From NCBI GenBank assembly GCA_014879535.1, contig JACSRX010000079.1:1-56140 (forward strand): a stretch of DNA of 56,140 bases, in the 5' to 3' direction. Below, one piece after another: positions 1-51,046 of the stretch (position 1 is the first letter of the stretch; each line of letters begins with the position of its first letter). A model generated the notes under the pieces. The model saw only the letters and a list, made by a program, of their open reading frames with translations. It did not search any database and was not told the origin of the DNA. This DNA is from Chthoniobacterales bacterium (GTDB lineage: Bacteria > Verrucomicrobiota > Verrucomicrobiia > Chthoniobacterales > JACTMZ01). Position numbers and translations under genes: made by a program.

Positions 1-1851
1 ACCGTCCTCCCCCGGCGGCGGATAGAATTCGGCCACCTTGGCGACGAATTCGTCGATGAACACCTTCATCATGGCGATGACCGCCTTGATGCGGTTGCTG
101 ATGAAGCTATACATGAACAACGCGGGGATCGCCACGAACAGCCCGAAGGTTGTCGCCAGCAGCGCACTGGCGATACCCGGTGCGATCGAGTTCACATCCA
201 CTTCGCCCGACTTGGCGATGACCGCAAACGTGATCATCACGCCGACCACGGTGCCGAGAAGGCCGACATAGGGACCACCGGCAATGCTGATGGTGAGATA
301 GGTGAGACCCTTGCCGAGTCGGTGCTGCTCGTGGACGAGCGCGGTATCCAAGGCGGCCCGGATCGCCTGGATCGAGCGGGCGCGCAACCCCTGCCCACGA
401 TACCGGTCTTGGGCCAACCTGTTGCGGATCTCCTCCGAACCGACATGGTAAACGTGGTAGAGTGGTGCACCGGTCGCCAGTTCGAGTTCCTCTTCGGACA
501 ATTCCTTGCCGAAAGTGGCGGCGGCCTTGGGCGAATCCAGATCGAGGGCGGTCAGATCGCTGGACACCTCCGCCCACAAGTTCTGGAACGCGGCGTTGCC
601 TTTCTCGATCCGGGCGAGATCGCGGAATTTCACCCCCGCGACCGACCAACCGACAATCATCATGACCACGCAGACCCCGACGGCGATCCAGCCGTCGAAC
701 ATCATGTTTTTGGCGATGTCTCCGAAGAGGGACACGTGCTCGAGCATTCCGCTGCTCTTGCCTCCGCTTCCCTCGGGATCACCGGCCTGCAAGAGCCGTC
801 CGGACAACTCGCTGCCGGCCTGAGTGAGGTAGGCGAGACGGAGGGCTGCGGACGGCAGAGCGGACCCGTAAATCTGCAACTCGTCCAACTCCCCGACAAA
901 ACGGCCCGCGCTGCCTTGGGCGGGATCGGGGCCTCCTAAAAACATGGCACCGCTACCGGCGGGCAATCCCGATTCGACGGCAGCGGCTTCCCGACCGTCC
1001 ACATACAGAACGAGGCGGTTGCCCGAAGCCGTGATGGCGACTTGACGCCAAGCACCGCCTCCAACCGCCTCCGGTGCCACGGCGCGCGGACTGCCCGTTA
1101 GCTCGACAAACGGAGCACCGCCCGCTGCCAGACCGACACGGAATCCGCCGGCATCGGGACGACTGAAAAGAACCGCCTCATTCGAGGTGTTCATCGGCTT
1201 GACCCACAGGACGAGGGTCAGTTCCCCACCCGCTTCCCACGCGTTGGCCGGGGTGCCGGGGATCTTCACCGGCTCGCGGCCGACGAGACGCAGTCCGCTG
1301 GCGATGATCGCCCCTTCCGTGACATTTCCCGCCGTTTCGGCATCGGAACCCGCGGCCGAGGAATCGCGCGGGGGCGTTCCCCGCTCGTCGAGGTGGTAAA
1401 CGAGCCGAGCGTTGTCCGGATACGTCTTCTTGGGATCGGGAGCTCCCTCGGCATCCGGCTTCGAGTTGCCGTAATACAGCCAGACATCCGTCTTGCCGGA
1501 AATCTCGGGCACACGCACCCACGCAAATCCCTCCGCCATGAGCGGGTCGAACTTTTCGAGATGAAAGGCAAGCGATGTCTTGTCATCTCCGGCAATGAAT
1601 CGGAGATCGCTGCCATCCTGGTTCACGAACTCGAACGGCAACACGCCGGGATGCAGGCGCACAAGAACGACGACCTCGCCCGGTTCGCCTTGGATTTCAG
1701 CGCCCTCGACAGTCGGGTCGATGGTCAACTTGACACGGCCGCCCCAGTCATTGTTCCACCAGGCGGAAGCATCGACGATCCCGAGAAGCAGGATGGCAAA
1801 CAGAGCAGCGAGGCCGCGCGAACGCGGCAGTTGTGTGATGAGCGACTTCAT
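1..1851 (-). CDS. DUF2341-LamG-MotA/TolQ/ExbB proton-channel protein (C terminus cut by window edge)
   Basis: The reading frame is open from the ATG at 1851 to base 1, giving 617 residues so far. After a signal peptide (MKSLITQLPRSRGLAALFA...) there is a DUF2341-type region (about residues 28-130, with the WVRVPEISGKTDVWLYYGN signature), then a LamG/concanavalin-like domain (about 145-345). A membrane segment follows near 384-404, and then a MotA/TolQ/ExbB channel domain with two more membrane helices (about 515-545 and 557-583). The family uses proton flow through an ExbB/ExbD-type stator to do work across the periplasm. The ATG overlaps the tpsB stop (ATGA), so the two are translationally coupled. 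This suggests that the channel serves the two-partner secretion machine; that role is inferred. An ExbD gene is expected just outside the left edge. Confidence 0.85.
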   Translation of the reverse strand, partial: MKSLITQLPRSRGLAALFAILLLGIVDASAWWNNDWGGRVKLTIDPTVEGAEIQGEPGEVVVLVRLHPGVLPFEFVNQDGSDLRFIAGDDKTSLAFHLEKFDPLMAEGFAWVRVPEISGKTDVWLYYGNSKPDAEGAPDPKKTYPDNARLVYHLDERGTPPRDSSAAGSDAETAGNVTEGAIIASGLRLVGREPVKIPGTPANAWEAGGELTLVLWVKPMNTSNEAVLFSRPDAGGFRVGLAAGGAPFVELTGSPRAVAPEAVGGGAWRQVAITASGNRLVLYVDGREAAAVESGLPAGSGAMFLGGPDPAQGSAGRFVGELDELQIYGSALPSAALRLAYLTQAGSELSGRLLQAGDPEGSGGKSSGMLEHVSLFGDIAKNMMFDGWIAVGVCVVMMIVGWSVAGVKFRDLARIEKGNAAFQNLWAEVSSDLTALDLDSPKAAATFGKELSEEELELATGAPLYHVYHVGSEEIRNRLAQDRYRGQGLRARSIQAIRAALDTALVHEQHRLGKGLTYLTISIAGGPYVGLLGTVVGVMITFAVIAKSGEVDVNSIAPGIASALLATTFGLFVAIPALFMYSFISNRIKAVIAMMKVFIDEFVAKVAEFYPPPGEDG

Positions 1852-3485
1852 AGTTCCCCCCAAAGTCGGAAGACCATCAGGGAGTCCCCGGCCTTGATGC
1901 TTCCCTGATCCACCTGCGGAATACCGACAACCACCGACCCGTTGAGCCAATCAAGCAGCCTGATCGTCGCCCCGAATCCGTAGCTCCAAAGCTCGAACTG
2001 CGTGGTCTGCTCGGGCAGCGGATCATTGATGTAGGCCGCCCCGGCATCGAGGAAGACGAAGGCACGCAACTCCTCGGCCGGACGCTTCGTCCAGGCCAAC
2101 AGCGATGGCGAATAAAATTCCAGACTGGCGGCCACCGCACTGTCCCCGACGACTTGCGATTCGAGATACCCGCGCACGGTGTTCAATCCGCCCACCGAAA
2201 ACTGCTCGCTGTCCACGAGCGCGTTCGGCGTGGCCTGCCCCTGCAGGACGCCTCGTGCGCGGAAATCCCACCAGAGGTCCTGCTCGTAGCTGCTGTAGCC
2301 GCGGAAATAAAAATAATTGCCGTTGGCCTCATAGCGCCGGTTGTCGAACTCGACTTCACCGCTACCCATTCCGCGGAAGTGCCAGTTGAGCGACCCGTCG
2401 AACTCGAAGCGGTAGTTCTTGCCCGCCCAGAACCCGGTGTAGCCGACCATGAACGGCCAATACGCCACCGGCGACGAGGAGATGAGTGCGTTGTCGAACG
2501 ACAGCGACTGCTCAAAATACTTGTAATCGATCCCGAACGTCACCGTGTGGTAGAGGCCCTGTTTGCCCGGCAACTCCGCGATCAGGCGCGTGCCGTAGAT
2601 CTCGCCATTTCCGGTCGAGGCCGAACCCCCGAGCGTGGACACGTCGCTGTTCTGCCGGATGGCCTGCGCCATGATCGAAAGACCGTCCCACCAAGGGAGA
2701 GGCGCGATGTAGTAACCCGAATAAACCGTGGCGTCCTCCGGCCGCTCCGGTGCCACCTGAAAAGCCAACCCGATCGTGTGCCCGAGTTGCCAGAGATTGT
2801 CGTAGCGTGCTGCCAAGTCGAACCGGAGCGGTGTTGTGTTCTCGCTGTAACGGTTGTTCAACTCCGCACTCGCGTGGAAGGGAAACACGTCCTTCACGAG
2901 CAACTCGACATCCACGGTGCCCGGCTGGGCACCCGGCTTGAACTCGGGGGTCACCTGCAAATCCGAGCGGCGGTTGAGCGCAATGAGGTCCCGCTGAACG
3001 TCGTCGATCCGCGGCAAAACGCCCTCCTGCAGCGACGGGGCGCGGCGCTTGATTTTCTCGATGTCAAAATACCGCGATCCCCTCACGGTCAGGCGCCCGA
3101 CGGGCATTTCCTGGACGACGAGCACGACCACCCCCTTGGACGGATCCTGCGGCGGAACCTCCACGACCACCGTCTGGTAACCCGCCCTCTGGTAGCGCTG
3201 CTCCAACGCGGCACGCGCCAGTTCCACATCCTCCTCCGTGCGATCGGGACCCATGTAGGCGTAAACGGCCATGTCCACCTCGTCCCGCGGAAGCTGCTTG
3301 GAGCCCACGATGCGGTATTCGCGGATGTAAAAGCGGTGCAGGGGGGAGGCTTCCTCGGGTGTCAGACTCGGCGCTGCAGACACGACTGGCCCCGCCTCCG
3401 GCGCGTCTTGGGCCCGGACAAATGCGGGGGAAAAAACGGCAGGAGTCAGAAACATTGCAAGCAATATGTTAGTTGACTTAATCAA
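1848..3485 (-). CDS. TpsB-type outer-membrane transporter (ShlB/FhaC/HecB family)
   Basis: This 545-residue protein should be the outer-membrane pore that secretes the giant TpsA encoded divergently at 4363. A signal peptide ends near the AQDAPEAG segment. A POTRA domain follows (about residues 50-125, starting RFYIREYRIVGSKQL), then a second POTRA-like stretch, then a 16-strand-type beta barrel with the family's conserved VRGY loop (VGGLNTVRGY, near residue 440). Length fits the family (about 550). The start is uncertain: a TTG at 3485, directly after an in-frame TAA, gives the best signal peptide with a basic n-region, while the first ATG lies at 3455. I see no good Shine-Dalgarno sequence before either. 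The stop overlaps the ATG of the downstream ExbB-like gene. Confidence 0.9.
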   Translation of the reverse strand: MIKSTNILLAMFLTPAVFSPAFVRAQDAPEAGPVVSAAPSLTPEEASPLHRFYIREYRIVGSKQLPRDEVDMAVYAYMGPDRTEEDVELARAALEQRYQRAGYQTVVVEVPPQDPSKGVVVLVVQEMPVGRLTVRGSRYFDIEKIKRRAPSLQEGVLPRIDDVQRDLIALNRRSDLQVTPEFKPGAQPGTVDVELLVKDVFPFHASAELNNRYSENTTPLRFDLAARYDNLWQLGHTIGLAFQVAPERPEDATVYSGYYIAPLPWWDGLSIMAQAIRQNSDVSTLGGSASTGNGEIYGTRLIAELPGKQGLYHTVTFGIDYKYFEQSLSFDNALISSSPVAYWPFMVGYTGFWAGKNYRFEFDGSLNWHFRGMGSGEVEFDNRRYEANGNYFYFRGYSSYEQDLWWDFRARGVLQGQATPNALVDSEQFSVGGLNTVRGYLESQVVGDSAVAASLEFYSPSLLAWTKRPAEELRAFVFLDAGAAYINDPLPEQTTQFELWSYGFGATIRLLDWLNGSVVVGIPQVDQGSIKAGDSLMVFRLWGEL

Positions 3486-3706: not shown

Positions 3707-4162
3707 TCAGATCCCCTCGCCGTCCAAACCACGCGTGTCCACAGTTCCATAGGGCGAAGCCTTCAGGACATCCTCCAAGGACGAGCTATCCATCATGTCA
3801 GCCACCAGATTTCTCGCCTCCCGCATCACATGGCGGAAACGGCACACGGACTCTTGGGAACACCTCTTGTAGTCTGTGACGGACACACAACTGATGGGGG
3901 CCAAGTAGCCGTCAAAATGCCGGACGATTTCCCCCATGGTGATGCGGCCCGGGTGTTTGGCCAGATAATACCCCCCTTTTTTGCCGGGCACGCTGTTCAC
4001 CCACTTGCGCTCTTTGAGATCGAGCATGATGTGCTCCAAGAACCGCTTGGGGATGTCATTGCGTCGGGCCAACTCGATGATGGGAATGGGGGCACCGCCA
4101 TAGTGCTCAGCCAGAGTAAACACCGCCCGCAGGGCGTAATCGGTGCGCATCGAAAGCTGCAT
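3707..4162 (-). CDS. Rrf2-family transcriptional regulator
   Basis: This 151-residue protein has the Rrf2 winged-helix signature: MRTDYALRAVFTLAEH at the N terminus, a recognition region IPKRFLEHIMLDLKE, and GKKGGYYLAK in the wing. Three cysteines follow in C-X8-C-X5-C spacing (in SCVSVTDYKRC and ESVCRF). That is close to the iron-sulfur ligands of IscR/NsrR (C-X5-C-X5-C or similar), so cluster sensing is plausible but not shown. I chose the ATG at 4162 because AAGGA lies 4 bases upstream; a TTG at 4198 is the longer alternative. It sits between tpsB and tpsA and next to the dyad at 4255, consistent with autoregulation and control of the secretion genes. CymR, the cysteine regulator, belongs to the same family, so a link to the sulfur operon further right cannot be excluded. 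Confidence 0.88.
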   Translation of the reverse strand: MQLSMRTDYALRAVFTLAEHYGGAPIPIIELARRNDIPKRFLEHIMLDLKERKWVNSVPGKKGGYYLAKHPGRITMGEIVRHFDGYLAPISCVSVTDYKRCSQESVCRFRHVMREARNLVADMMDSSSLEDVLKASPYGTVDTRGLDGEGI

Positions 4163-4241
4163 GACATCCTTGGTATCACAGAGGATAGGCCGCACCAAGT
4201 GTTGTCCTGGGCGGTCATGACGCCTCGAATGGAAAAGGTGT

Positions 4242-4362: not shown

Positions 4363-7300
4363 ATGCGCATTCACCGCCAACAGCACGTCGTGAGGGCCGG
4401 GAGCCGCAAGTTCTGGCTGACCACGGCGTTCCTGCTGCTCGGCGGCGCATCCACCTCGTTCACGGGGGACATTCTCCGGGGTGGCGCCACTGTGGAAAAC
4501 ACCCGCGCCCGCGCGGCGGCGGTGGCAGCCAGTGGTCAGCGTGCCGCGGCGGAAAGCCGGGCACGTTTCCAGGACCGTCTCGCCAAGACCACGATGGCCG
4601 TCCAGTCGGCAAGGTCCATGCAGGCCGCGGCACGGGCCGCTGCCGGAGTGGGCAACGTGCCGGACGGACTCACGCCGGGCGGGTTGGAACGCTACGAGCC
4701 AGGCCATCCCGATTATCGCTGGGATGGAGCGGATGGTCCGACCCAATCTGGCCAGATCGTCACCATCCACCAGAAGCTGCAGCAGGCGGTGCTGAACTGG
4801 AAAACGTTCAACATCGGCCGCAACACGACATTGCACTTCGACCAGAGCGCCGGGGGCAACAAGGCCGACCAGTGGGTGGCCTTCAACACCGTGCTCGATC
4901 CTTCGGGGCGCCCCTCACAGATCCTCGGTCGCATGACCGCCCCAGGGCAAGTTTACGTCATCAACCAGAACGGCATCATTTTTGGCGGCTCCAGCCAGGT
5001 CAACACCCGGGCGCTGGTCGCCTCATCGCTCCCCATCAACGTGAACTTGGTGGAGAAAGGCCTGCTCAACAACCCCGATCTCCAATTCCTATTTTCCGCG
5101 TTGCCACTCGCCGCAGGCACCCAAGGCACGGGTGCCTTCGTCCCCTCTCCTCCGTCCAGCGGCACCATTGGCGCCGTCGTCGTCGAGGCCGGGGCGAAGA
5201 TCAGCACCCCCACCTCGGCCGACAACACCGGCGGCCGTGTCGCGCTCATCGGGCCGCGTGTCGTCAACAACGGCGAAATTTCCAGCCCGGACGGCCAGAC
5301 AATCCTCGCGGCGGGACTTCAAGTCGGATGGACCGCGAGTTCCGATCCCAGCCTTCGCGGACTCCAAATCTACATCGGCGCCGTGAGCGACCCCTTGCTC
5401 GCACCCGACGGAGGGGTCGTTGTTCAAAACGGTGTGATCAGCGCCCCGCGAGGTGCCATCACGCTCACCGGCAGGGAAATCCGCCAGTCTGGGGTGATCG
5501 AAAGCACGACCTCTGTCTCGTTGAATGGCCGCGTCGATCTCATTGCCAGCTACAATGCCATCGCCAACCCGCGCTACGATGCCGCCGTGCCGGCCACCGG
5601 CTCACCCTTCCTTTACCGGACCACCGGCTCCGTCCATCTCGAACCGGGCAGTTTCATCAGCATCCTTCCGGAATGGGACAGCGACAAAAAGCTGATCGGC
5701 AGCGCCAAGCTCGCACTTCCGAGCCGCGTCAACATCGAGGGGTTGGCTGTGCATTTCGGCGCCAACTCGGGACTGCTGGCCCCGTCCGGTGAAGTCAACA
5801 TCAGCGTCGGCAATTGGTCCTATCTGAATTCACCCGCCCAATCGCAATTCCTCCGCGATGCCGGGCAGGTTTACGTGGACAACGGTGCTTTTATCGACGT
5901 ATCAGGCTCCCGCGATGTCGTCGTTCCCATGTCGCAGAATTTTCTTTCCATCCAACTGCGCGGGGCGGAGCTCGCAAACTCCCCCGTGCAGCGCGGTGGC
6001 ATCCTTCGCGGCGCAACCCTCATCGTGGACCTCCGGCGCAAGGGCACCTACTTCGGCCGGGAATGGGTTGGGACCCCGCTGGCGGACCTCACCGGATACA
6101 CCGGCCTGATCGAGCGCAGCATCGGCGAACTCACCCTCGACGGCGGCAACATCGATATCCAGGCAGGCGGCTCTGTGGTCATCCAGAGCGGAGCCTCCCT
6201 CGATGTCTCCGGCGGCTGGCGAAACGTGCAGGGCGGCAACGTCCGGACCACGCGGCTCTTGTCCGGAAACCAGATTGTCGACATCGGCAGCGCCACGCCG
6301 GATCGCGTTTACACGGGCATCTATGACGGACGGACCACCGTGATCCACACGAAATGGGGCGTCTCCAAGACCTACCGCAATCCGTTTGCCGCCGACGTCT
6401 CGCGCTACGAACCCGGCTACATCGACGGTGCCGGAGGTGGCAGCCTCTCCATCACCGCACCGGCGATGGCTTTGGACGGCAGCCTGTTCGGCCAGACGGT
6501 GACCGGCCCGCGCCAGCTGCGGTCCGCCACGACGGACAGTTCACTGCCGCAGGTCTCCTCGCTCGCGCTGCTCCTGCAGGCACAGCGAGGCGCAGCGCCG
6601 AACATCATCCCATCGTATCCCGATTTGGTGCAGATCGTCTTTGGCAACGGATCATCGGCAGGCCACGTCGCGCCTTTCGCCCTCGACGCCTCCGGCCATC
6701 CCGGAGAGCTTGACGAGGAGCGGCGCAAACGCATCAACCTCTCGACTGATCTCCTTGCCGGCACCGGCTTCGGTTCTCTCACCATCCAGAACGAAGGCGG
6801 CTCCATGGATCTTCCGCGGGGAGTCAACTTGAACGCACCAACGGGAGGGGCGATCTCCCTCACGGCGGGCAACATCACAATCAGCGGTTCGATCTTCGCG
6901 CCCGGGGGCACCCTCGCCTTCAAGGCCTACAACATCACGCCGGAGCAGGCCGCATTGGCCGCCGCCGCCCCGGTGCCGGTGGTGCCCGCGCCGAATCCCG
7001 GCATGGGGATTTTCCGGCTCGCATCCGGAGCCGTCCTCTCCACCGCCGGCCTTGTCGAGGACGACCGCCCCACCTCAACCCGCGCGGCGCCTCGTCCGTT
7101 CAGTCCCAACGGCGGCTCCATCAGCATCAATGCCTACACGGCCAATCTCGCCCCGGGCAGCCTGATCGACGTCTCCGGAGGCTTCAACATGAGCATCCAC
7201 GCCACGCGCCGCTACGGCAACGGCGGCTCCATCAGCATTCTCGCAGGACAGGACCCCGGTCTCCCGTCAGTGCTCGGCGGTAAGCTTTCACTCGGCTCCT

Positions 7301-10300
7301 CGCTGAGCGGATTCGCCGGCGGCCTTGGCGGCTCCCTCGCAATTCAGGCTCCGCTCATCCAGATCGGAGGCAAGGCGCTCAGCACCAATTCGCTCATGCT
7401 GTCGCCCGATTTCTTCTCGCGCGGCGGATTCGCCAGCTTCCATCTCACCGGACTCGGCGAGGCAACCTCGACCCCCGGAAAATTCCTCCCCGGCGTTTAC
7501 ATCGCCCCGGGCACGCGGATCGAGCCTGTGGTCGCGGGACTGTCACACACGCCGCACACACCGGGCGGACTCGGGTTGACCATGCGCGTCGTGGACAAAC
7601 CCATCGGGATCCGCTCGCCCATGCATCTGGCCTTCTCCGCTCCGGGCGTGAAGGACGCATTTTCCGGCGGACTGCTTGTGCGCGGCCACGTCGTGATGGG
7701 CCAAGGCGCCGTGATCAAGACTGATCCGCTCGGTGGGGTCTCCCTCAATGGAAACACCGTGACCATGCTGGGCTCGATTTTCGCGCCCGCCGGAACCATC
7801 TCCCTCTCCGGCGCCACGGATTCGAAATCCTTGTTTGCGGACCAGAATCAGGCTCTCGCCACGGTTTACATCGGACCCGGGAGCATCCTCTCCGCCGCGG
7901 GCACCACGCTCATGCTGCCGGATCCCTACGGCCGCCGCACGGGACTCGTGCTTCCCGGCGGGACAATCTCCCTGCGCGGCAACATCATCGCCGCCGCGGG
8001 CTCCGTGCTCGATGTCTCGGGTGCCTCCGGTGTCTTCGACGTGCACCCGATGGTGGCGCGTCCGTTCGGAAGCGTGGCGGTGCCGGCCAACAGCGGACTC
8101 ACCGCGCCGCCCTTCGCCCTCCGCACGATTCCCATGCGTCTCGACAGCGGCGGCGGCCTCATTTCGTTGCAAGGCGGACAGCTGCTCTTCTCGGAGGCAA
8201 CCTTGCTGGGCCGCGGCGGTGGCCCGGGCGCCACGGGCGGCTCGCTCATCGTGTCCTCCGGTCGCTTTTATCCCGAGGGGGCGTCACCGCTGCCGAACGA
8301 CATCAATCTCATCGTGAAACAGAGTGGCTCCGTCCTCGCCGAGCCGCCACCGGGCGTCGGCTATGGCGTCGGACTTCCGGCGGTTCCCGCGGCGGGATTT
8401 TCCAATGCCGGGACGGGATACTTCGTCGCCGATGTTTTTGGAGCGGGCGGATTCGATGCGCTCGCGCTCCGGGGCAACGTGCAGTTCCTCGGACCTGTCA
8501 GCATCACTGCCGGATCCGCCATTTCCGTGGCTGACGGCGGCGTGCTCTGGGCTGACAGCGACGTTCGCTTGACCGCACCCTATGTGGCGCTGGGCATGGC
8601 ATTCCAACCACCGGTCGCACCGGAGGACCGCACAAGTCCGTTCCTGCTGGGAAGCGCCCCGTTCAACTTCGCGCCGACCTACGGTCCCGGACGGCTCTAT
8701 GTGACGGCCCGCAATATCGATGTTGGCACGCTCTCTCTGCAGAACATCGGTGGCGCTTCCCTCTCGGCGGATCGTGACCTGCGTGGAAGCGGGTTCTTCA
8801 ACATCGCGGGCACCCTCGACCTGCGAGCCGGGCAAGTTTATCCGGTGACGGCCTCCGAATTCACCATCGTCGCCTACGACTACACGCTCGGGGGCACGAA
8901 CCGCAGCGGCACCATCAACATCACGGGGACATCCACCCAACCGCTGCCGCTCTCGGCCGGCGGCACGTTGAGCGTCTATGCTTCTGTCATCAACCAAGGC
9001 GGTGTTCTCCGTGCGCCGTTCGGCACGATCAACTTTGGCTGGGACGGCACGGGAGCCAAGCCTGTGGATCTCCTTGCCGGCAACGCCGTCGCCTTCCCCG
9101 TGACCGGTGAACTCAACCTCGCACCGGGCAGCGTCACCTCCGTCTCCGCCATCGATCCCATCACCGGCAAAGGCATCACGATCCCCTACGGCGTGAGTCC
9201 GGACGGAACCTCGTGGATCGACCCGCGCGGCGTGGACATCACTTCGGGAGGACTCCCCGAGAAGACCATCCGGGTCGCCGCACAAAATCTCTCGGTGGCC
9301 GAAGGTGCCACGATCGACATCCGCGGGGGCGGCGAATTGCTCGCCTACCGCTGGGAGCAGGGCAATGGCGGCACCGTGGACATCCTGTCTTCAACCACGA
9401 CCTTCGCCGTCCTTCCGGGAGTGCAAGCCGACATCGCCCCCTTTGCCCCGTTCGCCCTCTCGCTCAACGCGGCCGACGGTCCCGGCTACGCCAACAGCTC
9501 TCTCGGCTTGGGCGACCGCGTTTATCTCGCGGGCAGCAAGACGCTGGCCGCCGGATATTACACGCTGCTCCCCGCACGCTACGCCCTGCTGCCCGGCGCC
9601 GTGCTCGTGACTCCGCTGAACCAGACCGCGCCCGCCGGCAGCTACGAGACGGCCGAGGGCGCCAGCATTGTCTCGGGCTACCGCTTCAACGGTCTCAACT
9701 CCTCGCGCACGATCTCGACCATCTCGGAACATTTCGAGGTCGCCTCCGCGGATGTCGTCAACAACCGGGCCAAATACGAGGTGATCACCGCCAGCTCCTT
9801 CCTCGCGCGCGCCGCGTCGGAGCTGAACATCGACGCGCAGCGGCTTCCCCGTGATTCCGGCTATCTTCTCCTGCAGGCGGCAAATACCATGACCCTGCTC
9901 GGCGATGTCATTGCGCAGCCCGCCGGACGCGGACGCGGCGGGGCGATGGACATCAGTTCTCCGCGCGACATCGTCATCAACACCGGCGGGACACCCGTGG
10001 CCGGGGCCATCGCCCTCAGTTCCGAGAAGCTCTCGGGCTTCGAGGTCGAAAGCCTCCTCGTCGGCGGACGCAGAATCCGCGGGACAAACGGCACGTCCGT
10101 CGAGGTGCTCTCGGGCAAGGTGACCCTTGACAATGCAGGCTCCGCACTCTCCGCCCGCGACGTGGTGCTGACAGCAAAAACAGAACTCACCCTCGCAGCT
10201 GGATCTTCCATCTCATCCTCTGGCCCCCTCAGCGGCGCGGCGGAAACGCTCCTTTTCACGGCTGACGGCACCGCACTCCGCGTCTCCGGCGACGAGGATG

Positions 10301-13300
10301 CCGCCATCCTCCGCACGGGCACCACGGCTTCCACGGCGCCCAAGCTCACCATCAACGCAGGGACCTCGCTCTCCGGTGCCGCGCTGCTGATCGACTCGTC
10401 GGCAGGAATGACCATCAACCCGAATACATCGCTCGACGCCGTCGCCTACTCGATCAGCAGCGGCAGGATCAGCCTGCAGCTCGACAACCCCGGCTTGCCA
10501 GTCGCGGACGGACTCATCCTCGGGGGATCACTCCTGCAGAAACTCGGTTCCGCCCACAAGCTGTCGCTCGCGGGCTATTCGTCCATCGACATCTACGGCA
10601 CGGGCACTTTCGGGGGCTCCGAGTTGTCCATACTCGCCCTCAACGCCCCCGAAATCCGCGGCTTCAACACCTCGGGCGGCGAGGCCCGCTTCGTGGCGGA
10701 TGAAATCCTCCTCGGCAATTCCTCGGGCGGCAGCGGACCCGCTGGCGGCGTCGGCACTTCCGGCACGCTCGCATTCGAGGGCAGAACGATCCGCCTCGGC
10801 GCCAACCAACTCGGGGTCGAAGGCTACCAGCTCGTCCGCTTGGGGGCATCCGGAACCGTCATCGGCGAAGGTAGCGGGGCGTTCAATGTCCAGGAATCCC
10901 TCGCCATCAGGACGCCGCTGTTGACCGGCGCATCCGGCGCGGATCGCGCCATCAATGCGGGCGGGGCGTTCACCGTTGAGGGGACGGGGGCACAGGCCGA
11001 CATCACCCGGGCGGGCCTCGGATCCACCCTGGCCTTGAGCGGGGCATCCCTTGACCTAGGAGGACTCGTCCTGCTGCCAAGCGGCCTGCTTTCCGCGAAG
11101 ACCACCGCGGGTGATCTCGTGGTCAATGGACTCCTTGATGTCGGAGGCACCCGCCAGGAATTCTATGACCTGATCCGGTTCGCCGACGGCGGCATCATCG
11201 AGCTGCAATCCCTCGCGGGCGACGTGAACATCAATGCAGGCGCCGCTCTCAGCATCGCCTCGCATCAGGCAGGCGGCGCTGCGGGCACGTTGATCATACG
11301 TTCGCCCCAAGGCGCATTCCTTTCGGCGGGCACCCTGCTCGGTTCCGGAAACAGCCGCCAAGGCTCGTTCGCACTCGACACCGCGGCACTTCCCTCCTAC
11401 GCCGCCCTCGGCGCACAGCTCACGGCAGGCTCCTTCACCGAAAGCCAGGAGTTCCGCATCCGCACCGGCGATGTCGCGCTGGACGGAACAGCACGCGCCC
11501 TCACCTTCCGTCTCTCGGCCGACGGCGGCTCGGTCCTCGTCACCGGCCTCATCGACGCGTCCGGAAAACAGGGCGGTGAAATCTCCCTCGCCGCACACGG
11601 CGACATGATCCTAGGCGGCGGTGCGGTGCTCGATGCCTCGGGCGAGGACTTCAGCAATGCCGGCAAGGGCGGTCTGGTGCAGCTCGAAGCCGGCGCGCAA
11701 ACCGGAGGCATCGTCGGCCCCGGCTCGGTGCAGATCCTCTCTGGATCGACCATTGACCTCTCGGTCGGCTCAAAAATCGAAGGCGATGCATTCACTCCCG
11801 GCACCAGCGCTTACTTCGGACGCTTCTCCGGCAAGCTGCACATCCGCGCCCCCCAGATTGCCGGTTCCACCGACCTCGCCGTCGCCCCGATTGGCGGTGA
11901 CGTGGTGGGGGCCTCCAGCATCCTTGTCGAGGGTTACCGCCTCTACGACCTGACCTCCACCGGCGGCCTCATCACCGGATGGAGAACCTCGCTTGGAGCA
12001 CTGCCTGCAGCCGGAACGGTCCAACGCCGAGTTTACGACGACGCCACTGCCTACCTCTCGGCGGCCAACCATGACGCGATGCTTCTGCGCCTGCTTGGCA
12101 GCGATCCCCAGAATTTGCACAACCTTCTGGTGCTCGCACCCGGCGTTGAGATCATCAACCTCACGGGCAACCTTCGGATCGGCTCCGACTCAGCCTCCTC
12201 GACCGCTCTCGGCAGCGCGTCGCAAACCTCGGCGGATTGGAACTTCGCGGACTTCCGCTTCGGCCCGAACCAGGCCCCCGGCGTCCTCACCCTGCGGGCA
12301 GCCGGCAACATCGAGGTGCTCAACGCGCTCAGCGATGGATTCCGTCCCGACACGCCCTTCGACGCCTCCACACCTGCCGGCCAGCAACTCTGGCTCAGCG
12401 CGCTCATGGCACCCAATCTCAGCCTCCCGCTCAACAACCAGTCTTGGTCGTTCCGACTCTCGGCCGGCGCGGATCTTGGGGCAGCGGACTTCCGCAGCGT
12501 CCGCCCATTGGCTGGCCTTGCTGCGGGCAGTGGCTCGTTGCTGCTCGGCAAGTTCTATCCGCAAATCCTCCTCAGCGGCACCGCGGCGGGTGCCAACGCC
12601 ACCACCGCTGCCGCCATCAACAACCGTTATCAGGTCATCCGCACCGGCACAGGCGATATCACCATCAAGGCGGCCCGCGATGTGCAGCTGCGCAACCAGT
12701 TCGCCAGCATCTACACTGCAGGCGTGCGCGTTCCCAACCCCACTCTCGGGGGCACCTTCGATGTCCCGCTCATCAGGCCGCCGCAGCAGCAAGTTCTCGC
12801 CCTCGGTGCCATCCAGCAGAGTTATGCGGCCTATTTCAGCATGGCTGGCGGCGACCTGAGCATCCGGGCTCAGGAGAACATCCGCCGCGTCACGCAGATT
12901 TCGGGACAGATCGTGGACGACTCCGTGCGGCAACTGCCATCCAACTGGCTCTACCGTCGGGGCTACGTGGACCCGGAAACCGGCGAATTCGGCCGTGCCC
13001 GCAACGCGGACACCGGCGACTTCGCATCGACAGCATGGTGGGTGGACTTCAGCAACTTCTTCTTCGATATCGGCGCGCTCGGTGGCGGCAACGTCACACT
13101 CGAAGCGGGGCAGGACATCCGCAACGTCAACGCCGCCCTCCCCACCAACGGCCGCATGTCCAAAGGCGAACCGGATTCCGGGAAACTCGTGGAGCTCGGC
13201 GGCGGCGATCTCATCGTCCGTGCCGGACGCGACATCGATGCAGGCATTTACTACGTGCAACGCGGCACGGGCATTCTTTCGGCGGGCCGCGACATCATCA

Positions 13301-15621
13301 CCAACCCCACACGCTCCCCGTCGCTCGGTGCTCTGACTGGATCTGCCGCGCTCGCATCGGAGACATGGTTGCCCACGACATTGTTCCTCGGCCAGGGAGG
13401 TTTCGACATCAGCGCCCGTGGAAACATCCTTCTCGGCCCGGTAGCCAACGCTCACCTTCTGCCCGCGGGCTATAACAACACCATCTGGTATAAGACCTAC
13501 TTCTCGACCTACTCGCCAGAAAGCTACGTCAACATTGCGTCGCTTGGGGGCTCGGTCACCCTGCGCACGTCCGCATCCCTGCCGGCCAGCGGCAACAGCC
13601 TCGAACCGACACCCCTGCTGCTGGCTTGGGCGGAACGCCAATTGCTCGGGTTCTCGCAAAACACGCGCTCCTCATTCTACCAGCCCTGGCTGCGCCTTGC
13701 TGAGCGCGCCACCGATCCGTTCCGCACGGTTCTGTCCGTGATGCCGCCCATCCTCAAGGCCATCGCCTATGCCGGGGACATCAATCTCGTCGGCGACATC
13801 ACCCTGGCCCCCTCACCATTGGGAACCGCCGAGCTGGTCGCTGCCGGCGCCATCAACGGCCTGCAGCCCGACGGTGTGATCACGATGCAGGGCACCGGCT
13901 CCACGAAGGCGTGGGCCACCTCGAGCATCAACATCTCCGACGCCAATCCGGCTTCGATCCCCGGGGTGTCGAGCCCGTTCGGCTACCAGACCATCGCCGG
14001 GATCTCCGCGGGGCAAGCGGTCAACACCCAAAGCGAGTTCCTGAAATTCATCGACAATCTATTCCTCGAATCCGGCGCCACGCTGGGCACCGCACTGCAG
14101 ACCAAACTCGCGCTGCACGGCCCGGGCCCATTGCATGCAGCCGACCAAGCGCCCGTGCGACTCTACGCACGCACGGGCGACATTTCGGGACTGTCCCTGT
14201 TCTCGCCGAAATACACCCGCATCTTCGCGGGCCGCGACATCTCGGACATCGCCTTCTACCTGCAGAACGTCCGCGAGGACGACATCAGCATGGTGTCCGC
14301 GGGCAGAAACATCCTCGCCTACAATGCCGGCAGCATCCTGCGCATCGCCGCCACATCGGCCGGCAACATTCCGTTGGCAGCGCGCGGTCCTCTCGCGGGC
14401 GACATCCAGATCGGCGGGCCCGGCAGCCTGCAGGTGCTCGCCGGACGGAAACTCGACCTCGGCACCGGGGCGGACAATGGAAACGGCACCGGCACAGGTA
14501 TCACCAGCATCGGCAACGCCCGCAATCCCTACCTGCCCTTCGGCGGCGCCAGCCTTTTTGTCGGCGCCGGCCTGGGCTCGGCGCCCGGACTCGGCGGCAG
14601 CGACCTCGACTTCGACAACTTCATCAATCTCTACGTCAAGGGCCCCTACGGTGCCGGCTGGCTCTCCGAACTTTCCGCTCAGACCGGCGGCAGGGATTTC
14701 GACGACCTGACGCCCGACCAGCAGAAGCAGATCGCCCTCCAGGTGTTCTACCTCGCGCTGCGCGATGCCGGCCGCCTCGGAAGTTACGAGGACGGCTTCG
14801 CCGCCATCGCCACCCTCTTCTCCGGCGGCCCTTACCGAGGCGACATCCTCACGCGAGGACGCGACATCCGCACCAAGAGCGGCGGTGACATCACCATCTT
14901 CGCACCCGGCGGCGGACTGCAACTTGCCAGCAGCATCATCGGCAATCCGTCCACCCCGCCCGGCATCATCACCGAGACCGGCGGCAACATTTCCATCTTC
15001 ACCGACGGAGACATCGGCATCGGCGTGGGCCGCAGCTTCACACTGCGCGGCGGCAACCAGATCCTCTGGTCCTCCTCCGGCGACATCGCCGCCGGTTCCT
15101 CCGCCAAGACGGTGCAAAGCGCCCCGCCCACCCGCGTGATCATCGACCCGACCAGCGCCACCGTGCAGACCGACCTTGCCGGCTTGGCCACGGGTGGCGG
15201 CATCGGTGTCCTCGCCACCGTGGCAGGCATCGAGCCCGGCGACGTCGATCTCATCGCCCCCACGGGAACGGTCGATGCCGGTGACGCCGGCATCCGCGTC
15301 TCGGGCAACCTCAGCATCGCCGCCGACCAGGTGCTCAATGCGGACAACATCCAAGTGGCCGGCGGCTCCGCCGGCGTTCCCACCACCGCCCCGGTGGCCG
15401 CATCCGTCGCGCCGAGCGTCGCCCCGAGTTCCGCCACCAGCGCCACATCAAGCGCCGCGCAGCAACTCGTCCAGCAATCCGCACCGGCCGGCCGTGACGG
15501 CGTCGAGGAAGCGCCCTCCATCATCACCGTCGAGGTCCTCGGCTACGGCGGCGGTGAAGGCGGTTCCAGTCGGGAGGAAGACGAGGACAAACCGCGCGAC
15601 AACCGCCAAGCCGCGCTCTGA
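4363..15621 (+). CDS. Giant TpsA exoprotein (filamentous haemagglutinin family, DUF3739)
   Basis: This is a 3,752-residue secreted protein. The ATG at 4363 gives a long signal peptide (MRIHRQQHVVRAG, then a hydrophobic FWLTTAFLLLGGA core); an upstream in-frame TTG at 4309 would only add a proline- and arginine-rich leader. The two-partner secretion domain covers about residues 100-330, with typical motifs QAVLNWKTFNIG, GRPSQILGRMTAPGQVYVIN and NGIIFG. It is followed by thousands of residues of glycine/serine-rich beta-helix repeats of the type SLSITAPAMALDGS and VDVSGG. A DUF3739-like segment (LTPDQQKQIALQVFYLALRDAG) lies near residues 3410-3490. The C terminus is an alanine/serine-rich linker plus a charged tail. 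It is probably exported by the TpsB at 1848 and may act as a surface adhesin or matrix fibre; that role is inferred. Expression is probably set by the dyad over its promoter. Confidence 0.93.
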   Translation: MRIHRQQHVVRAGSRKFWLTTAFLLLGGASTSFTGDILRGGATVENTRARAAAVAASGQRAAAESRARFQDRLAKTTMAVQSARSMQAAARAAAGVGNVPDGLTPGGLERYEPGHPDYRWDGADGPTQSGQIVTIHQKLQQAVLNWKTFNIGRNTTLHFDQSAGGNKADQWVAFNTVLDPSGRPSQILGRMTAPGQVYVINQNGIIFGGSSQVNTRALVASSLPINVNLVEKGLLNNPDLQFLFSALPLAAGTQGTGAFVPSPPSSGTIGAVVVEAGAKISTPTSADNTGGRVALIGPRVVNNGEISSPDGQTILAAGLQVGWTASSDPSLRGLQIYIGAVSDPLLAPDGGVVVQNGVISAPRGAITLTGREIRQSGVIESTTSVSLNGRVDLIASYNAIANPRYDAAVPATGSPFLYRTTGSVHLEPGSFISILPEWDSDKKLIGSAKLALPSRVNIEGLAVHFGANSGLLAPSGEVNISVGNWSYLNSPAQSQFLRDAGQVYVDNGAFIDVSGSRDVVVPMSQNFLSIQLRGAELANSPVQRGGILRGATLIVDLRRKGTYFGREWVGTPLADLTGYTGLIERSIGELTLDGGNIDIQAGGSVVIQSGASLDVSGGWRNVQGGNVRTTRLLSGNQIVDIGSATPDRVYTGIYDGRTTVIHTKWGVSKTYRNPFAADVSRYEPGYIDGAGGGSLSITAPAMALDGSLFGQTVTGPRQLRSATTDSSLPQVSSLALLLQAQRGAAPNIIPSYPDLVQIVFGNGSSAGHVAPFALDASGHPGELDEERRKRINLSTDLLAGTGFGSLTIQNEGGSMDLPRGVNLNAPTGGAISLTAGNITISGSIFAPGGTLAFKAYNITPEQAALAAAAPVPVVPAPNPGMGIFRLASGAVLSTAGLVEDDRPTSTRAAPRPFSPNGGSISINAYTANLAPGSLIDVSGGFNMSIHATRRYGNGGSISILAGQDPGLPSVLGGKLSLGSSLSGFAGGLGGSLAIQAPLIQIGGKALSTNSLMLSPDFFSRGGFASFHLTGLGEATSTPGKFLPGVYIAPGTRIEPVVAGLSHTPHTPGGLGLTMRVVDKPIGIRSPMHLAFSAPGVKDAFSGGLLVRGHVVMGQGAVIKTDPLGGVSLNGNTVTMLGSIFAPAGTISLSGATDSKSLFADQNQALATVYIGPGSILSAAGTTLMLPDPYGRRTGLVLPGGTISLRGNIIAAAGSVLDVSGASGVFDVHPMVARPFGSVAVPANSGLTAPPFALRTIPMRLDSGGGLISLQGGQLLFSEATLLGRGGGPGATGGSLIVSSGRFYPEGASPLPNDINLIVKQSGSVLAEPPPGVGYGVGLPAVPAAGFSNAGTGYFVADVFGAGGFDALALRGNVQFLGPVSITAGSAISVADGGVLWADSDVRLTAPYVALGMAFQPPVAPEDRTSPFLLGSAPFNFAPTYGPGRLYVTARNIDVGTLSLQNIGGASLSADRDLRGSGFFNIAGTLDLRAGQVYPVTASEFTIVAYDYTLGGTNRSGTINITGTSTQPLPLSAGGTLSVYASVINQGGVLRAPFGTINFGWDGTGAKPVDLLAGNAVAFPVTGELNLAPGSVTSVSAIDPITGKGITIPYGVSPDGTSWIDPRGVDITSGGLPEKTIRVAAQNLSVAEGATIDIRGGGELLAYRWEQGNGGTVDILSSTTTFAVLPGVQADIAPFAPFALSLNAADGPGYANSSLGLGDRVYLAGSKTLAAGYYTLLPARYALLPGAVLVTPLNQTAPAGSYETAEGASIVSGYRFNGLNSSRTISTISEHFEVASADVVNNRAKYEVITASSFLARAASELNIDAQRLPRDSGYLLLQAANTMTLLGDVIAQPAGRGRGGAMDISSPRDIVINTGGTPVAGAIALSSEKLSGFEVESLLVGGRRIRGTNGTSVEVLSGKVTLDNAGSALSARDVVLTAKTELTLAAGSSISSSGPLSGAAETLLFTADGTALRVSGDEDAAILRTGTTASTAPKLTINAGTSLSGAALLIDSSAGMTINPNTSLDAVAYSISSGRISLQLDNPGLPVADGLILGGSLLQKLGSAHKLSLAGYSSIDIYGTGTFGGSELSILALNAPEIRGFNTSGGEARFVADEILLGNSSGGSGPAGGVGTSGTLAFEGRTIRLGANQLGVEGYQLVRLGASGTVIGEGSGAFNVQESLAIRTPLLTGASGADRAINAGGAFTVEGTGAQADITRAGLGSTLALSGASLDLGGLVLLPSGLLSAKTTAGDLVVNGLLDVGGTRQEFYDLIRFADGGIIELQSLAGDVNINAGAALSIASHQAGGAAGTLIIRSPQGAFLSAGTLLGSGNSRQGSFALDTAALPSYAALGAQLTAGSFTESQEFRIRTGDVALDGTARALTFRLSADGGSVLVTGLIDASGKQGGEISLAAHGDMILGGGAVLDASGEDFSNAGKGGLVQLEAGAQTGGIVGPGSVQILSGSTIDLSVGSKIEGDAFTPGTSAYFGRFSGKLHIRAPQIAGSTDLAVAPIGGDVVGASSILVEGYRLYDLTSTGGLITGWRTSLGALPAAGTVQRRVYDDATAYLSAANHDAMLLRLLGSDPQNLHNLLVLAPGVEIINLTGNLRIGSDSASSTALGSASQTSADWNFADFRFGPNQAPGVLTLRAAGNIEVLNALSDGFRPDTPFDASTPAGQQLWLSALMAPNLSLPLNNQSWSFRLSAGADLGAADFRSVRPLAGLAAGSGSLLLGKFYPQILLSGTAAGANATTAAAINNRYQVIRTGTGDITIKAARDVQLRNQFASIYTAGVRVPNPTLGGTFDVPLIRPPQQQVLALGAIQQSYAAYFSMAGGDLSIRAQENIRRVTQISGQIVDDSVRQLPSNWLYRRGYVDPETGEFGRARNADTGDFASTAWWVDFSNFFFDIGALGGGNVTLEAGQDIRNVNAALPTNGRMSKGEPDSGKLVELGGGDLIVRAGRDIDAGIYYVQRGTGILSAGRDIITNPTRSPSLGALTGSAALASETWLPTTLFLGQGGFDISARGNILLGPVANAHLLPAGYNNTIWYKTYFSTYSPESYVNIASLGGSVTLRTSASLPASGNSLEPTPLLLAWAERQLLGFSQNTRSSFYQPWLRLAERATDPFRTVLSVMPPILKAIAYAGDINLVGDITLAPSPLGTAELVAAGAINGLQPDGVITMQGTGSTKAWATSSINISDANPASIPGVSSPFGYQTIAGISAGQAVNTQSEFLKFIDNLFLESGATLGTALQTKLALHGPGPLHAADQAPVRLYARTGDISGLSLFSPKYTRIFAGRDISDIAFYLQNVREDDISMVSAGRNILAYNAGSILRIAATSAGNIPLAARGPLAGDIQIGGPGSLQVLAGRKLDLGTGADNGNGTGTGITSIGNARNPYLPFGGASLFVGAGLGSAPGLGGSDLDFDNFINLYVKGPYGAGWLSELSAQTGGRDFDDLTPDQQKQIALQVFYLALRDAGRLGSYEDGFAAIATLFSGGPYRGDILTRGRDIRTKSGGDITIFAPGGGLQLASSIIGNPSTPPGIITETGGNISIFTDGDIGIGVGRSFTLRGGNQILWSSSGDIAAGSSAKTVQSAPPTRVIIDPTSATVQTDLAGLATGGGIGVLATVAGIEPGDVDLIAPTGTVDAGDAGIRVSGNLSIAADQVLNADNIQVAGGSAGVPTTAPVAASVAPSVAPSSATSATSSAAQQLVQQSAPAGRDGVEEAPSIITVEVLGYGGGEGGSSREEDEDKPRDNRQAAL

Positions 15622-15634
15622 AACCAAGCGACTC

Positions 15635-17722
15635 CTATTGCTGCGGTGCTCCGAGGGCCTTCGCGCGCTCGATCAGCGTGAGGAATTCCGCGCGATAGCT
15701 TCCGGCATCCTCGCCGAGCGAGCCGCGGGCGATTTTTTGGATGTCATCCCACGAAATGTCCCCCTGCTCGGGTGAGTTGCGGAGCTTCATCCCGAAGGCC
15801 GCGACGGCGGAGGCGAAGCGGAAGTCGTCCGAGGCTTTGCCGAAGTCGGGAATCTCCTTCGCGCCGAACGGAACTTCGAGGAGCTCGCTCTTGTCACCGT
15901 CGGGCGCCTTGTAGCGGAGTTTGACGGTCAAGAGCTCGTCGGAAGAAGCCGACACTGCGCCCTCGGGCTTCCGGTATTTCAACGGATCAACCGAGGGCTG
16001 TCCGGGCACTGCCTGACCGGCCGGGATGATTTCATAGAGCGCGGTGACGGTGTGTCCCTCGCCGATTTCGCCGGCATCCTTCTTGTCGTCGTTGAAGTCT
16101 TCCTTCGCCAGCAGGCGGTTCTCGTAGCCGATGAGGCGGTAGCCCGCGACGCGGGCGGGATTGAATTCGACCTGGATTTTCACGTCCTTGGCAATGGTGA
16201 AGAGCGTCGAGCCCATTTCCTCGACCAGCACCTTGCGCCCTTCGGTGAGGGAATCGATGTAGGCGTAGTTGCCATTGCCCTTGTCGGCGAGCAGTTCCAT
16301 CGTGGAGTCCTTGAGGTTGCCGGTGCCGAATCCGAGGACCGACAGGAACACGCCGGACGCGCGCTCCTTCTCGATCAGGCGCTGAAGCTCGCTCTGGTCG
16401 GTGACGCCGACATTGAAATCCCCGTCGGTGCAGAGAATCACGCGGTTGCTTCCCTCCTTCAGGAAATTCTCCCGGGCCACCTCGTAGGCGAGCCTGATGC
16501 CCTCGGAACCGTGCGTGGAGCCTCCTGCGGAAAGATTGGTGAAGGCGTCGATGATTTCCTGCTTCTTCGTGCCCGGTGTGGACGGAAGCACGAGGCCGGA
16601 GGAACCGGCATAGGCGACGACGGCCACGCGGTCCTTCGGGGAAAGATTCTCGACGAGGGCGCGGAGGCTGCGCTGCAGCAATGGCAGTTTGTCGGGCGAA
16701 TTCATCGAGCCGGAGCTGTCGATGAGGAAGACGAGATTGGCGGGCGCGCGCTCCGAGGCATGTGTCTCGCGCCCCTTGAGCCCGATCTGCACCAGTTCGC
16801 GGCGGCTGTCCCATGGCGCGCGGGCGGCTGCCACAGTCACCGAAAACGGGGCGGACCCTTCAGGCTGCGGATAGTCGTAGCGGAAGTAATTGAGCAACTC
16901 CTCGGTGCGGATCGCCCCGGCGGGCGGCAGTTGGTCGCCCTGGAGAAAGCGCCGCACGTTCGAATAGCTGGCCGTGTCCACATCGATGGAAAACGTGGAA
17001 AGCGGATTGTCCTGCGCAGCAAGGAAGACGTTCTCACGGGTGGCATTGTAGGCCTCGGTGTTGAAATCGCCGGGCCGGACAAGCAACGCCCCGGAGTCGT
17101 TGGCGAAGCCAACTTGGCGGGATCTCGAAACGCCTCCCCTGCCGCTGCCCCCCCCGTTCCCCCAACCTTGCGACAAACTTTCGATCTTTGATTTCTGCAC
17201 TTGATCGACTCCCGCCGAAGCCATCCTCCGCTCGGTAGTCTCGGACAGCGGCGCTGCCGAAGCCAGCACGGGGGCGGAAGACGGAGCCGGGGGCGCGTCA
17301 GCCCTGGCAATCGCTGGAGACGACGCCTCGGCGGGGATCTGCGCCACGGATGCAAGCCCCGGAACTTCAGCCACCGGGTTTTCTCGCTGGGCGAGCAGCG
17401 TATCTTCCGGCCGGAAAATCGATGGCAGAAGCAGCAGGCACGCCGCGGCGGCGATGGTGGTGGGCACGATCCAGCGGATGATGCGACGATGGCGACGGGC
17501 TGCGGATTGATGGTCGGCGCACTGCCGGAGCAGGGCCGTGCGTTCTTTCGGGTCGAGGAGTTCTGTGGGCATGGGAAGGGAGCCAAGGTCTTTGGCCAGG
17601 TTCAGGGTTTCGTTGAGTTCGTTCTGCAAAAGGTCGGAGGCGGCCAGTTCGCGCTCGAACTCCTCGCGCGCGCGGCCTTCCAGCTCGCCAAGTGCATAGG
17701 CGGTGATGCGGGGATCATTCAT
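15635..17722 (-). CDS. Membrane VWA-domain protein with anti-sigma-like N terminus (YfbK/DUF3520 type)
   Basis: This protein has 695 residues. Residues 1-75 (MNDPRITAYALGELEGRAR...) resemble the cytosolic part of anti-sigma factors without a zinc motif. A membrane helix follows near 85-104, then a low-complexity linker. Next come a vWF_A N-terminal segment (NPLSTFSIDVDTASY), a von Willebrand A domain with the MIDAS motif DSSGSM, and a C-terminal DUF3520 region ending in a helix with ISWDDIQKIARGSLG. The start codon overlaps the stop of the ECF sigma gene (ATGA). The arrangement implies a sigma/anti-sigma pair in which the periplasmic VWA domain senses a ligand or partner. The family is widespread and its ligand is unknown. 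The gene converges with tpsA, leaving only 13 bp between the stops. Confidence 0.88.
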   Translation of the reverse strand: MNDPRITAYALGELEGRAREEFERELAASDLLQNELNETLNLAKDLGSLPMPTELLDPKERTALLRQCADHQSAARRHRRIIRWIVPTTIAAAACLLLLPSIFRPEDTLLAQRENPVAEVPGLASVAQIPAEASSPAIARADAPPAPSSAPVLASAAPLSETTERRMASAGVDQVQKSKIESLSQGWGNGGGSGRGGVSRSRQVGFANDSGALLVRPGDFNTEAYNATRENVFLAAQDNPLSTFSIDVDTASYSNVRRFLQGDQLPPAGAIRTEELLNYFRYDYPQPEGSAPFSVTVAAARAPWDSRRELVQIGLKGRETHASERAPANLVFLIDSSGSMNSPDKLPLLQRSLRALVENLSPKDRVAVVAYAGSSGLVLPSTPGTKKQEIIDAFTNLSAGGSTHGSEGIRLAYEVARENFLKEGSNRVILCTDGDFNVGVTDQSELQRLIEKERASGVFLSVLGFGTGNLKDSTMELLADKGNGNYAYIDSLTEGRKVLVEEMGSTLFTIAKDVKIQVEFNPARVAGYRLIGYENRLLAKEDFNDDKKDAGEIGEGHTVTALYEIIPAGQAVPGQPSVDPLKYRKPEGAVSASSDELLTVKLRYKAPDGDKSELLEVPFGAKEIPDFGKASDDFRFASAVAAFGMKLRNSPEQGDISWDDIQKIARGSLGEDAGSYRAEFLTLIERAKALGAPQQ

Positions 17723-38566: not shown

Positions 38567-38567
38567 G

Positions 38568-41545: not shown

Positions 41546-41594
41546 AGTCGGTTTGTTTGGGATGTGGGGTTGATCTCGGATGAAGGGAGATTCT

Positions 41595-44598: not shown

Positions 44599-44623
44599 GG
44601 GGCAGCCACCAATCGCTTCCGTC

Positions 44624-50956: not shown

Positions 50957-51046
50957 GGCCGGTAGTCTCTCATTCGCGGCTGCCCCCACCACAAGCAGTG
51001 ATCCCCTCAGCCCTCAGAATTCTGTAATTACCAACGTGCCATGCTG

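What the first reader, a model, noticed from the sequence alone, without database searches (positions are those of the whole stretch)
1..3485. A proton-channel (ExbB-type) protein with a LamG/DUF2341 ectodomain is translationally coupled to a TpsB exporter
Known TpsB transporters work without an energised partner. Here a MotA/TolQ/ExbB protein with a large extracytoplasmic carbohydrate/lectin-like domain begins inside the tpsB stop codon, and the exported TpsA is unusually large (3,752 residues). The layout suggests that proton flow drives or gates secretion, or retracts or anchors the fibre: a powered two-partner secretion system.
Basis: partly seen in the sequence, partly recalled or inferred. 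Interest (0 to 1): 0.75.

Follow-up and report, generated by a model that had tools for sequence, protein, structure and literature searches.

The report
Giant-adhesin exporter operon with proton motor
The window holds one end of a widely conserved gene cluster that pairs a two-partner exporter of a giant surface protein with its own proton-driven Ton motor; the pairing is already recorded in Pseudomonas aeruginosa but nobody has tested what the motor does, so it is a good place to ask whether such export can be powered.

Summary
A TpsB gene (1848-3485, -) overlaps by ATGA a gene for a signal peptide, DUF2341 and LamG-like ectodomain fused to an ExbB channel (1-1851, -, cut by the contig end). 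A giant TpsA (3,752 aa, DUF3739 type) lies divergently beside it. The operon continues on another contig of the same genome, which begins inside tonB. Relatives show the missing exbD. The full cluster is tpsB, exbB, exbD, tonB, Porin_5, coiled-coil protein, PpiC isomerase, with tpsA near. It is conserved in 25 fetched loci of the order and across Alpha-, Beta- and Gammaproteobacteria, other Verrucomicrobiota and a Myxococcota MAG. DUF3739 TpsA and DUF2341-ExbB co-occur almost perfectly (25 genomes both, 3 ExbB only, 0 TpsA only, 110 neither). So it is one machine, not chance adjacency. It is not new: the gene order matches P. aeruginosa pdtB-exbB2-exbD2-tonB4-PA0696 to PA0699, reported in 2009 and called 'still uncharacterized' in 2020. 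TpsA size is normal for the family. The powered-secretion idea fits the evidence but is untested; a motor for the conserved porin is the main rival. The finding is a member of a known but functionally unsolved kind.

The parts
1848..3485 (-). tpsB: outer-membrane two-partner transporter, 545 aa, two POTRA domains and barrel; no predicted N-terminal plug helix
   Evidence: POTRA_2, ShlB; AF2 mean pLDDT 85.5, residues 1-50 unstructured; best PDB folds CdiB 6wim, FhaC 4ql0
1..1851 (-). exbB fused to periplasmic DUF2341-LamG ectodomain; 617 aa seen, runs off the contig
1848..1851 (-). ATGA overlap of exbB start and tpsB stop (translational coupling inferred)
   Evidence: in 78 of 86 loci the ExbB mature N-terminus begins 60-160 nt after the tpsB stop
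1423..1617 (-). DUF2341 domain of ExbB (residues 79-143)
847..1248 (-). LamG / ConA-like lectin domain of ExbB (residues 202-335)
   Evidence: fold match to arabinan-binding domain 4 of AbnA, 5hon_A Z 23.6, rmsd 2.0, 185 aligned
67..390 (-). MotA/TolQ/ExbB channel domain (residues 488-595); channel Thr534 and Thr567 kept, Ser562 where many ExbB have Glu
3707..4198 (-). Rrf2-family regulator between tpsB and tpsA, local to this genome
   Evidence: no hit in the 26 same-order loci
4363..15621 (+). tpsA: giant filamentous-haemagglutinin-like exoprotein, 3,752 aa, TPS secretion domain and C-terminal DUF3739
4741..5313 (+). TPS secretion domain of TpsA
15049..15384 (+). DUF3739 domain of TpsA

Best explanation
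This is one end of a Pdt-type two-partner secretion operon: tpsB, DUF2341-LamG-exbB, exbD, tonB, Porin_5, coiled-coil, PpiC, with a 3.5-4.6 thousand residue DUF3739 TpsA. That identity is shown (above 0.95). Inferred mechanism: five ExbB subunits around an ExbD dimer (stoichiometry taken from known ExbBD and TolQR structures) conduct protons past the conserved ExbD aspartate and ExbB threonines; the motion is passed through TonB across the periplasm to the outer-membrane apparatus, most likely TpsB with its TpsA in transit, so that export or final display of the very long beta-helix is pulled or gated by the proton motive force. The lectin-like ectodomains would form a periplasmic collar that holds the motor to peptidoglycan, to the outer-membrane partner or to TpsA, while the PpiC and coiled-coil proteins keep TpsA export-competent. 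The target of the energy transfer is inference, not shown.
For: Operon conserved: ExbD beside the DUF2341-ExbB, and TpsB before it, in the same-order loci whose contigs reach that far. In the 80 best named relatives with room to judge: TpsB directly upstream 68/73, ExbD 70/73, TonB 61/67, Porin_5 63/63, coiled-coil 56/63, PpiC 43/63. Near-perfect co-occurrence with DUF3739 TpsA: 23 both, 3 ExbB-only, 0 TpsA-only, 31 neither in the window's order; 2 both, 79 neither in the order of Methylosinus; 25 of 26 ExbB-bearing genomes or records from elsewhere have DUF3739 (Fisher p 5e-13 and 2e-24, not corrected for relatedness). TpsB-type transporters of another kind in the same order have no ExbB neighbour (3 of 3: L080, L081, L082). 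Channel residues: ExbD Asp in 106/107, both ExbB Thr in 110/110. Chaperone-like PpiC and coiled-coil genes belong to the same operon; the parvulin Par27 binds the TpsA FHA in Bordetella (PMC8151025). Precedent: a proton motor, GldLM, powers type IX secretion and adhesin movement (PMC8986121).
Against: No secretion assay exists. FhaC-type TPS translocates in vitro without added energy (PMC5422565), and Par27 is not needed for FHA secretion. The pre-POTRA segment of TpsB is short, variable and low in complexity, with no conserved TonB-box-like motif seen by eye. The Porin_5 gene is as conserved as tpsB and could be the real client. In Methylomagnum the exbB-exbD-tonB cluster is not next to tpsB, although a DUF3739 TpsA lies about 15 kb away on the same plasmid. 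All family ExbBs lack the transmembrane Glu found in many ExbB proteins, so channel activity itself is inferred.
Confidence: 0.48

Rival explanations
1. The Ton motor powers uptake or signalling through the Porin_5 barrel (or another outer-membrane protein), and TpsA is a surface fibre that captures the nutrient or signal, as HxuA does for HxuC. TpsB exports TpsA passively; the genes share an operon because they serve one task.
For: Porin_5 in 63/63 loci; in P. aeruginosa the cluster is induced by phosphate starvation and a cell-surface signalling system (PMC2729926, PMC7035377); proteobacterial members carry sigma factor and FecR genes; HxuABC precedent described in PMC5422565.
Against: Porin_5 is not a TonB-dependent receptor family with a plug domain (own knowledge), and Pfam finds no such domain in it; exbB follows tpsB directly, while the porin comes fourth; the strict co-occurrence shown is with TpsA.
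Confidence: 0.3
2. The motor does not export TpsA but acts on the finished fibre or the envelope: it anchors, releases, retracts or moves the surface adhesin, or couples to peptidoglycan through the lectin-like collar, in the manner of Tol-Pal or gliding motors.
For: Large periplasmic ConA-like domain with the fold of a glycan-binding module; TolQ is the nearest ExbB-family structure by sequence; GldLM moves SprB as well as secreting it (PMC8986121).
Against: No OmpA/Pal-type peptidoglycan-binding protein was seen among the operon genes; glycan binding by the ectodomain is untested and a shared fold does not show it.
Confidence: 0.17
3. The adjacency is a chance or local arrangement with no functional link.
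For: Only that the window alone shows one pair of genes.
Against: Conserved order in three phyla and strict co-occurrence.
Confidence: 0.01

Closest known systems
P. aeruginosa PdtA/PdtB locus (PA0690-PA0699: pdtA, phdA, pdtB, exbB2, exbD2, tonB4, porin, PA0697, YbjN protein, PpiC)
   Same: Same gene set in the same order (PMC7035377; compare Klebsiella L075 and Methylosinus L073); large TpsA; co-expressed
   Different: The window lacks the VreA/VreI/VreR regulators and YbjN; tpsA is divergent with an Rrf2 gene between. Whether PA0693 carries the DUF2341-LamG ectodomain was not tested here
FhaC/FhaB and CdiB/CdiA two-partner secretion
   Same: TpsB fold (best PDB hits CdiB 6wim and FhaC 4ql0), TPS domain on TpsA
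   Different: Adds a dedicated ExbB-ExbD-TonB set, porin and isomerase; the TpsB model shows no N-terminal plug helix
ExbB-ExbD-TonB and TolQ-TolR-TolA motors
   Same: Channel domain, ExbD aspartate, TonB-like C-terminal domain
   Different: About 340-residue periplasmic DUF2341-LamG ectodomain on ExbB; transmembrane Glu replaced by Ala, Gly or Ser; no TonB-dependent receptor in the operon
GldLM motor of type IX secretion
   Same: Proton motor that drives outer-membrane protein export and adhesin movement (PMC8986121)
   Different: Different outer-membrane channel and no GldL/GldM relatives sought here; a working analogy only

Membership tests
Two-partner secretion (type Vb) | TpsB with POTRA_2 and ShlB-type barrel | tested here: met
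Two-partner secretion (type Vb) | TpsA with TPS domain encoded nearby | tested here: met
Two-partner secretion (type Vb) | TpsA secretion depends on TpsB | not testable with these tools
   needs a deletion strain
Two-partner secretion (type Vb) | N-terminal plug helix before POTRA1 as in FhaC | tested here: inconclusive
   residues 1-50 of the single-chain model unstructured; short variable segment in the family
ExbB/TolQ proton channels | MotA_ExbB domain, helical membrane fold and conserved channel Thr residues | tested here: met
ExbB/TolQ proton channels | Adjacent ExbD with transmembrane Asp | tested here: met
   met in relatives; in this genome the gene lies in the contig gap
ExbB/TolQ proton channels | Transmembrane Glu of E. 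coli ExbB (own knowledge: E176); not universal in the superfamily | tested here: not met
   Ala 80, Gly 16, Ser 14 of 110; of 7 own-genome paralogues 4 have Glu, 3 have Gly, Gln or Asn, so it does not define the superfamily
Pdt-type (PUMA3-linked) TPS cluster | Order tpsB-exbB-exbD-tonB-porin-unknown-PpiC with a giant tpsA | tested here: met
   against the published order (PMC7035377)
Pdt-type (PUMA3-linked) TPS cluster | Vre-type sigma factor and FecR regulators next to it (regulation, not core) | tested here: not met
   present in many proteobacterial loci, absent from most verrucomicrobial loci and from the window
Pdt-type (PUMA3-linked) TPS cluster | P. aeruginosa ExbB2 carries the same DUF2341-LamG ectodomain | not tested
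   no P. aeruginosa chromosome locus was fetched; full-length homologues seen in Klebsiella, Burkholderia, Cupriavidus, Dyella
GldLM / type IX secretion | GldL and GldM with SprA translocon | not tested
   used only as a mechanistic analogy

The most novel reading that the evidence does not exclude
A proton-powered subtype of two-partner secretion, spread over at least three phyla, in which a dedicated Ton motor with a lectin-like periplasmic collar drives or gates export of 3,500-4,600 residue TpsA proteins through TpsB.
Probability: 0.4. Interest if true: 0.85.

Novelty: new member of a known kind. Interest (0 to 1): 0.52.

Why it matters
Type V secretion is described as needing no energy source, and what drives it is an open question (PMC5422565, PMC8151025). 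A whole branch of TPS that travels with its own ExbB-ExbD-TonB set offers a clean genetic test, and it gives a first functional context to the DUF2341 appendage, which a 2025 survey of stator relatives lists as unexplained (PMC12505986).

Tried and rejected
Chance adjacency: rejected by conservation and co-occurrence. 'No ExbD follows': rejected; ExbD is in a contig gap here and present in relatives. 'Unusually large TpsA': rejected; typical for the family. Surface location of the lectin-like domain: rejected on predicted topology, since a signal peptide plus an N-terminal ectodomain before the first transmembrane helix puts it in the periplasm. A conserved TonB box in TpsB: looked for by eye in alignment A3 and not seen. 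Structural matches of the ectodomain to clostridial neurotoxin binding domains reflect the common ConA-like jelly roll and say nothing about function; the best match is an arabinan-binding module. The profile for the sensor-like VreA gene matched too widely and was dropped. A P. aeruginosa chromosome locus was not reached because the single genome scan returned other taxa among its best 80.

Full report
WHAT IS IN THE WINDOW. On the minus strand at the left end lie tpsB (1848-3485) and, overlapping its stop by ATGA, a gene for a 617+ residue protein (1851 to 1, cut by the contig end). Pfam gives POTRA_2 and ShlB for the first and DUF2341, Laminin_G_3 and MotA_ExbB for the second. Between tpsB and a divergent giant tpsA (TPS domain and DUF3739) is an Rrf2 regulator gene.

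THE REST OF THE OPERON. The window is a complete contig (C50). In the same genome Porin_5 occurs once, at the start of contig C68. The first 325 or so bases of C68 encode the C-terminal domain of TonB in another frame, starting in a run of G; then come Porin_5, a coiled-coil protein and a PpiC isomerase. In same-genus relatives the order is tpsB, exbB, exbD, tonB, porin, coiled-coil, PpiC. So exbD and the 5' half of tonB fall in the gap, which I estimate at about 0.8 kb from relatives.

CONSERVATION. Same-order loci carry ExbD beside the DUF2341-ExbB wherever the contig reaches that far. In these, where the contig allowed a judgement, TpsB was directly upstream in 68/73 (one more, L137, was hidden by an overlapping ORF), ExbD downstream in 70/73, TonB in 61/67, Porin_5 in 63/63. 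Annotated plasmid copies in Methylosinus, Cupriavidus and Klebsiella show the same core order. The ExbB tree separates Verrucomicrobiota from Pseudomonadota and places the window with Akkermansiaceae relatives, on a long branch, so there is no sign of a recent transfer between phyla.

CO-OCCURRENCE. In 57 genomes of the window's order, DUF3739 TpsA occurs in 23 and the DUF2341-ExbB in 26; all 23 are among the 26, and two of the three exceptions are 88% complete assemblies while in the third tpsA is cut by a contig end. In 81 genomes of another order the same two genomes have both and 79 have neither. Of 26 ExbB-bearing genomes or records elsewhere, 25 have DUF3739. Fisher tests ignore relatedness and are only descriptive. 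TpsB-like transporters of another kind in the same order (L080-L082) have no ExbB beside them.

MOLECULAR DETAIL. ExbD keeps the transmembrane Asp in 106/107; ExbB keeps both channel Thr in 110/110 but has Ala, Gly or Ser at the Glu of E. coli ExbB in all 110 with a letter there. AlphaFold2 gives a beta-rich ectodomain followed by ExbB helices; residues 146-343 superpose on the arabinan-binding domain of AbnA, Z 23.6-24, rmsd 2.0-2.1, and the helical part matches TolQ. The TpsB model matches CdiB and FhaC and shows no helix in its first 50 residues; the family has only a short variable segment before POTRA1.

WHAT IS KNOWN. In P. aeruginosa pdtA, phdA, pdtB, exbB2, exbD2, tonB4, PA0696 (putative porin), PA0697, PA0698 (YbjN family), PA0699 (PpiC) are co-regulated; [quoted passage not shown] The 2017 TPS review lists PdtA but holds no mention of ExbB. 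A 2025 stator survey names DUF2341 as an unexplained appendage (PMC12505986). I found no paper that tests the motor's role in TPS, within the limits of the library.

JUDGEMENT. Identity as a Pdt-type TPS operon with a dedicated Ton motor: shown. Proton-powered or gated TpsA export: plausible, untested, about 0.4-0.5. Motor for the porin or a receptor: about 0.3. Fibre anchoring or movement: about 0.17. The find is a member of a known but unsolved kind; its value is that it makes the question of energy in type V secretion directly testable.

Noticed in passing
window 1-1851; L086-L165: The whole DUF2341-ExbB family lacks the transmembrane Glu of E. coli ExbB (Ala/Gly/Ser in 110 of 110) while keeping both Thr and the ExbD Asp.
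   Followed up: partly
G059 (genome of L097, Rhodoblastus): Nine DUF3739 matches in one genome, so several giant TpsA proteins may share few TpsB-motor sets. The number of motor sets there was not counted.
   Followed up: no
L070, L072, L077, L116, L126: Two exbD genes in tandem between exbB and tonB.
   Followed up: no
L075 (Klebsiella quasipneumoniae plasmid pKqq_SB98_1): Complete tpsA-tpsB-exbB-exbD-tonB-porin-YbjN-PpiC set on a plasmid typed as conjugative.
   Followed up: no
window 3707-4198: Rrf2-family regulator between tpsB and tpsA, not found in the 26 same-order loci; possible redox or iron-sulfur control local to this lineage.
   Followed up: partly
window 33998-46000: Three glycoside hydrolase family 32 genes, one with LamG domains, and a sugar transporter: probably a fructan-use cluster.
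   Followed up: no
window 15635-17722: YfbK-like von Willebrand A protein convergent with tpsA.
   Followed up: no
window 48908-50992: 694 aa protein with an autotransporter-type PATR repeat.
   Followed up: no
L049 3063-5480: Two related proteins with a predicted membrane anchor and repeat-like helical region after PpiC in a same-genus relative.
   Followed up: no
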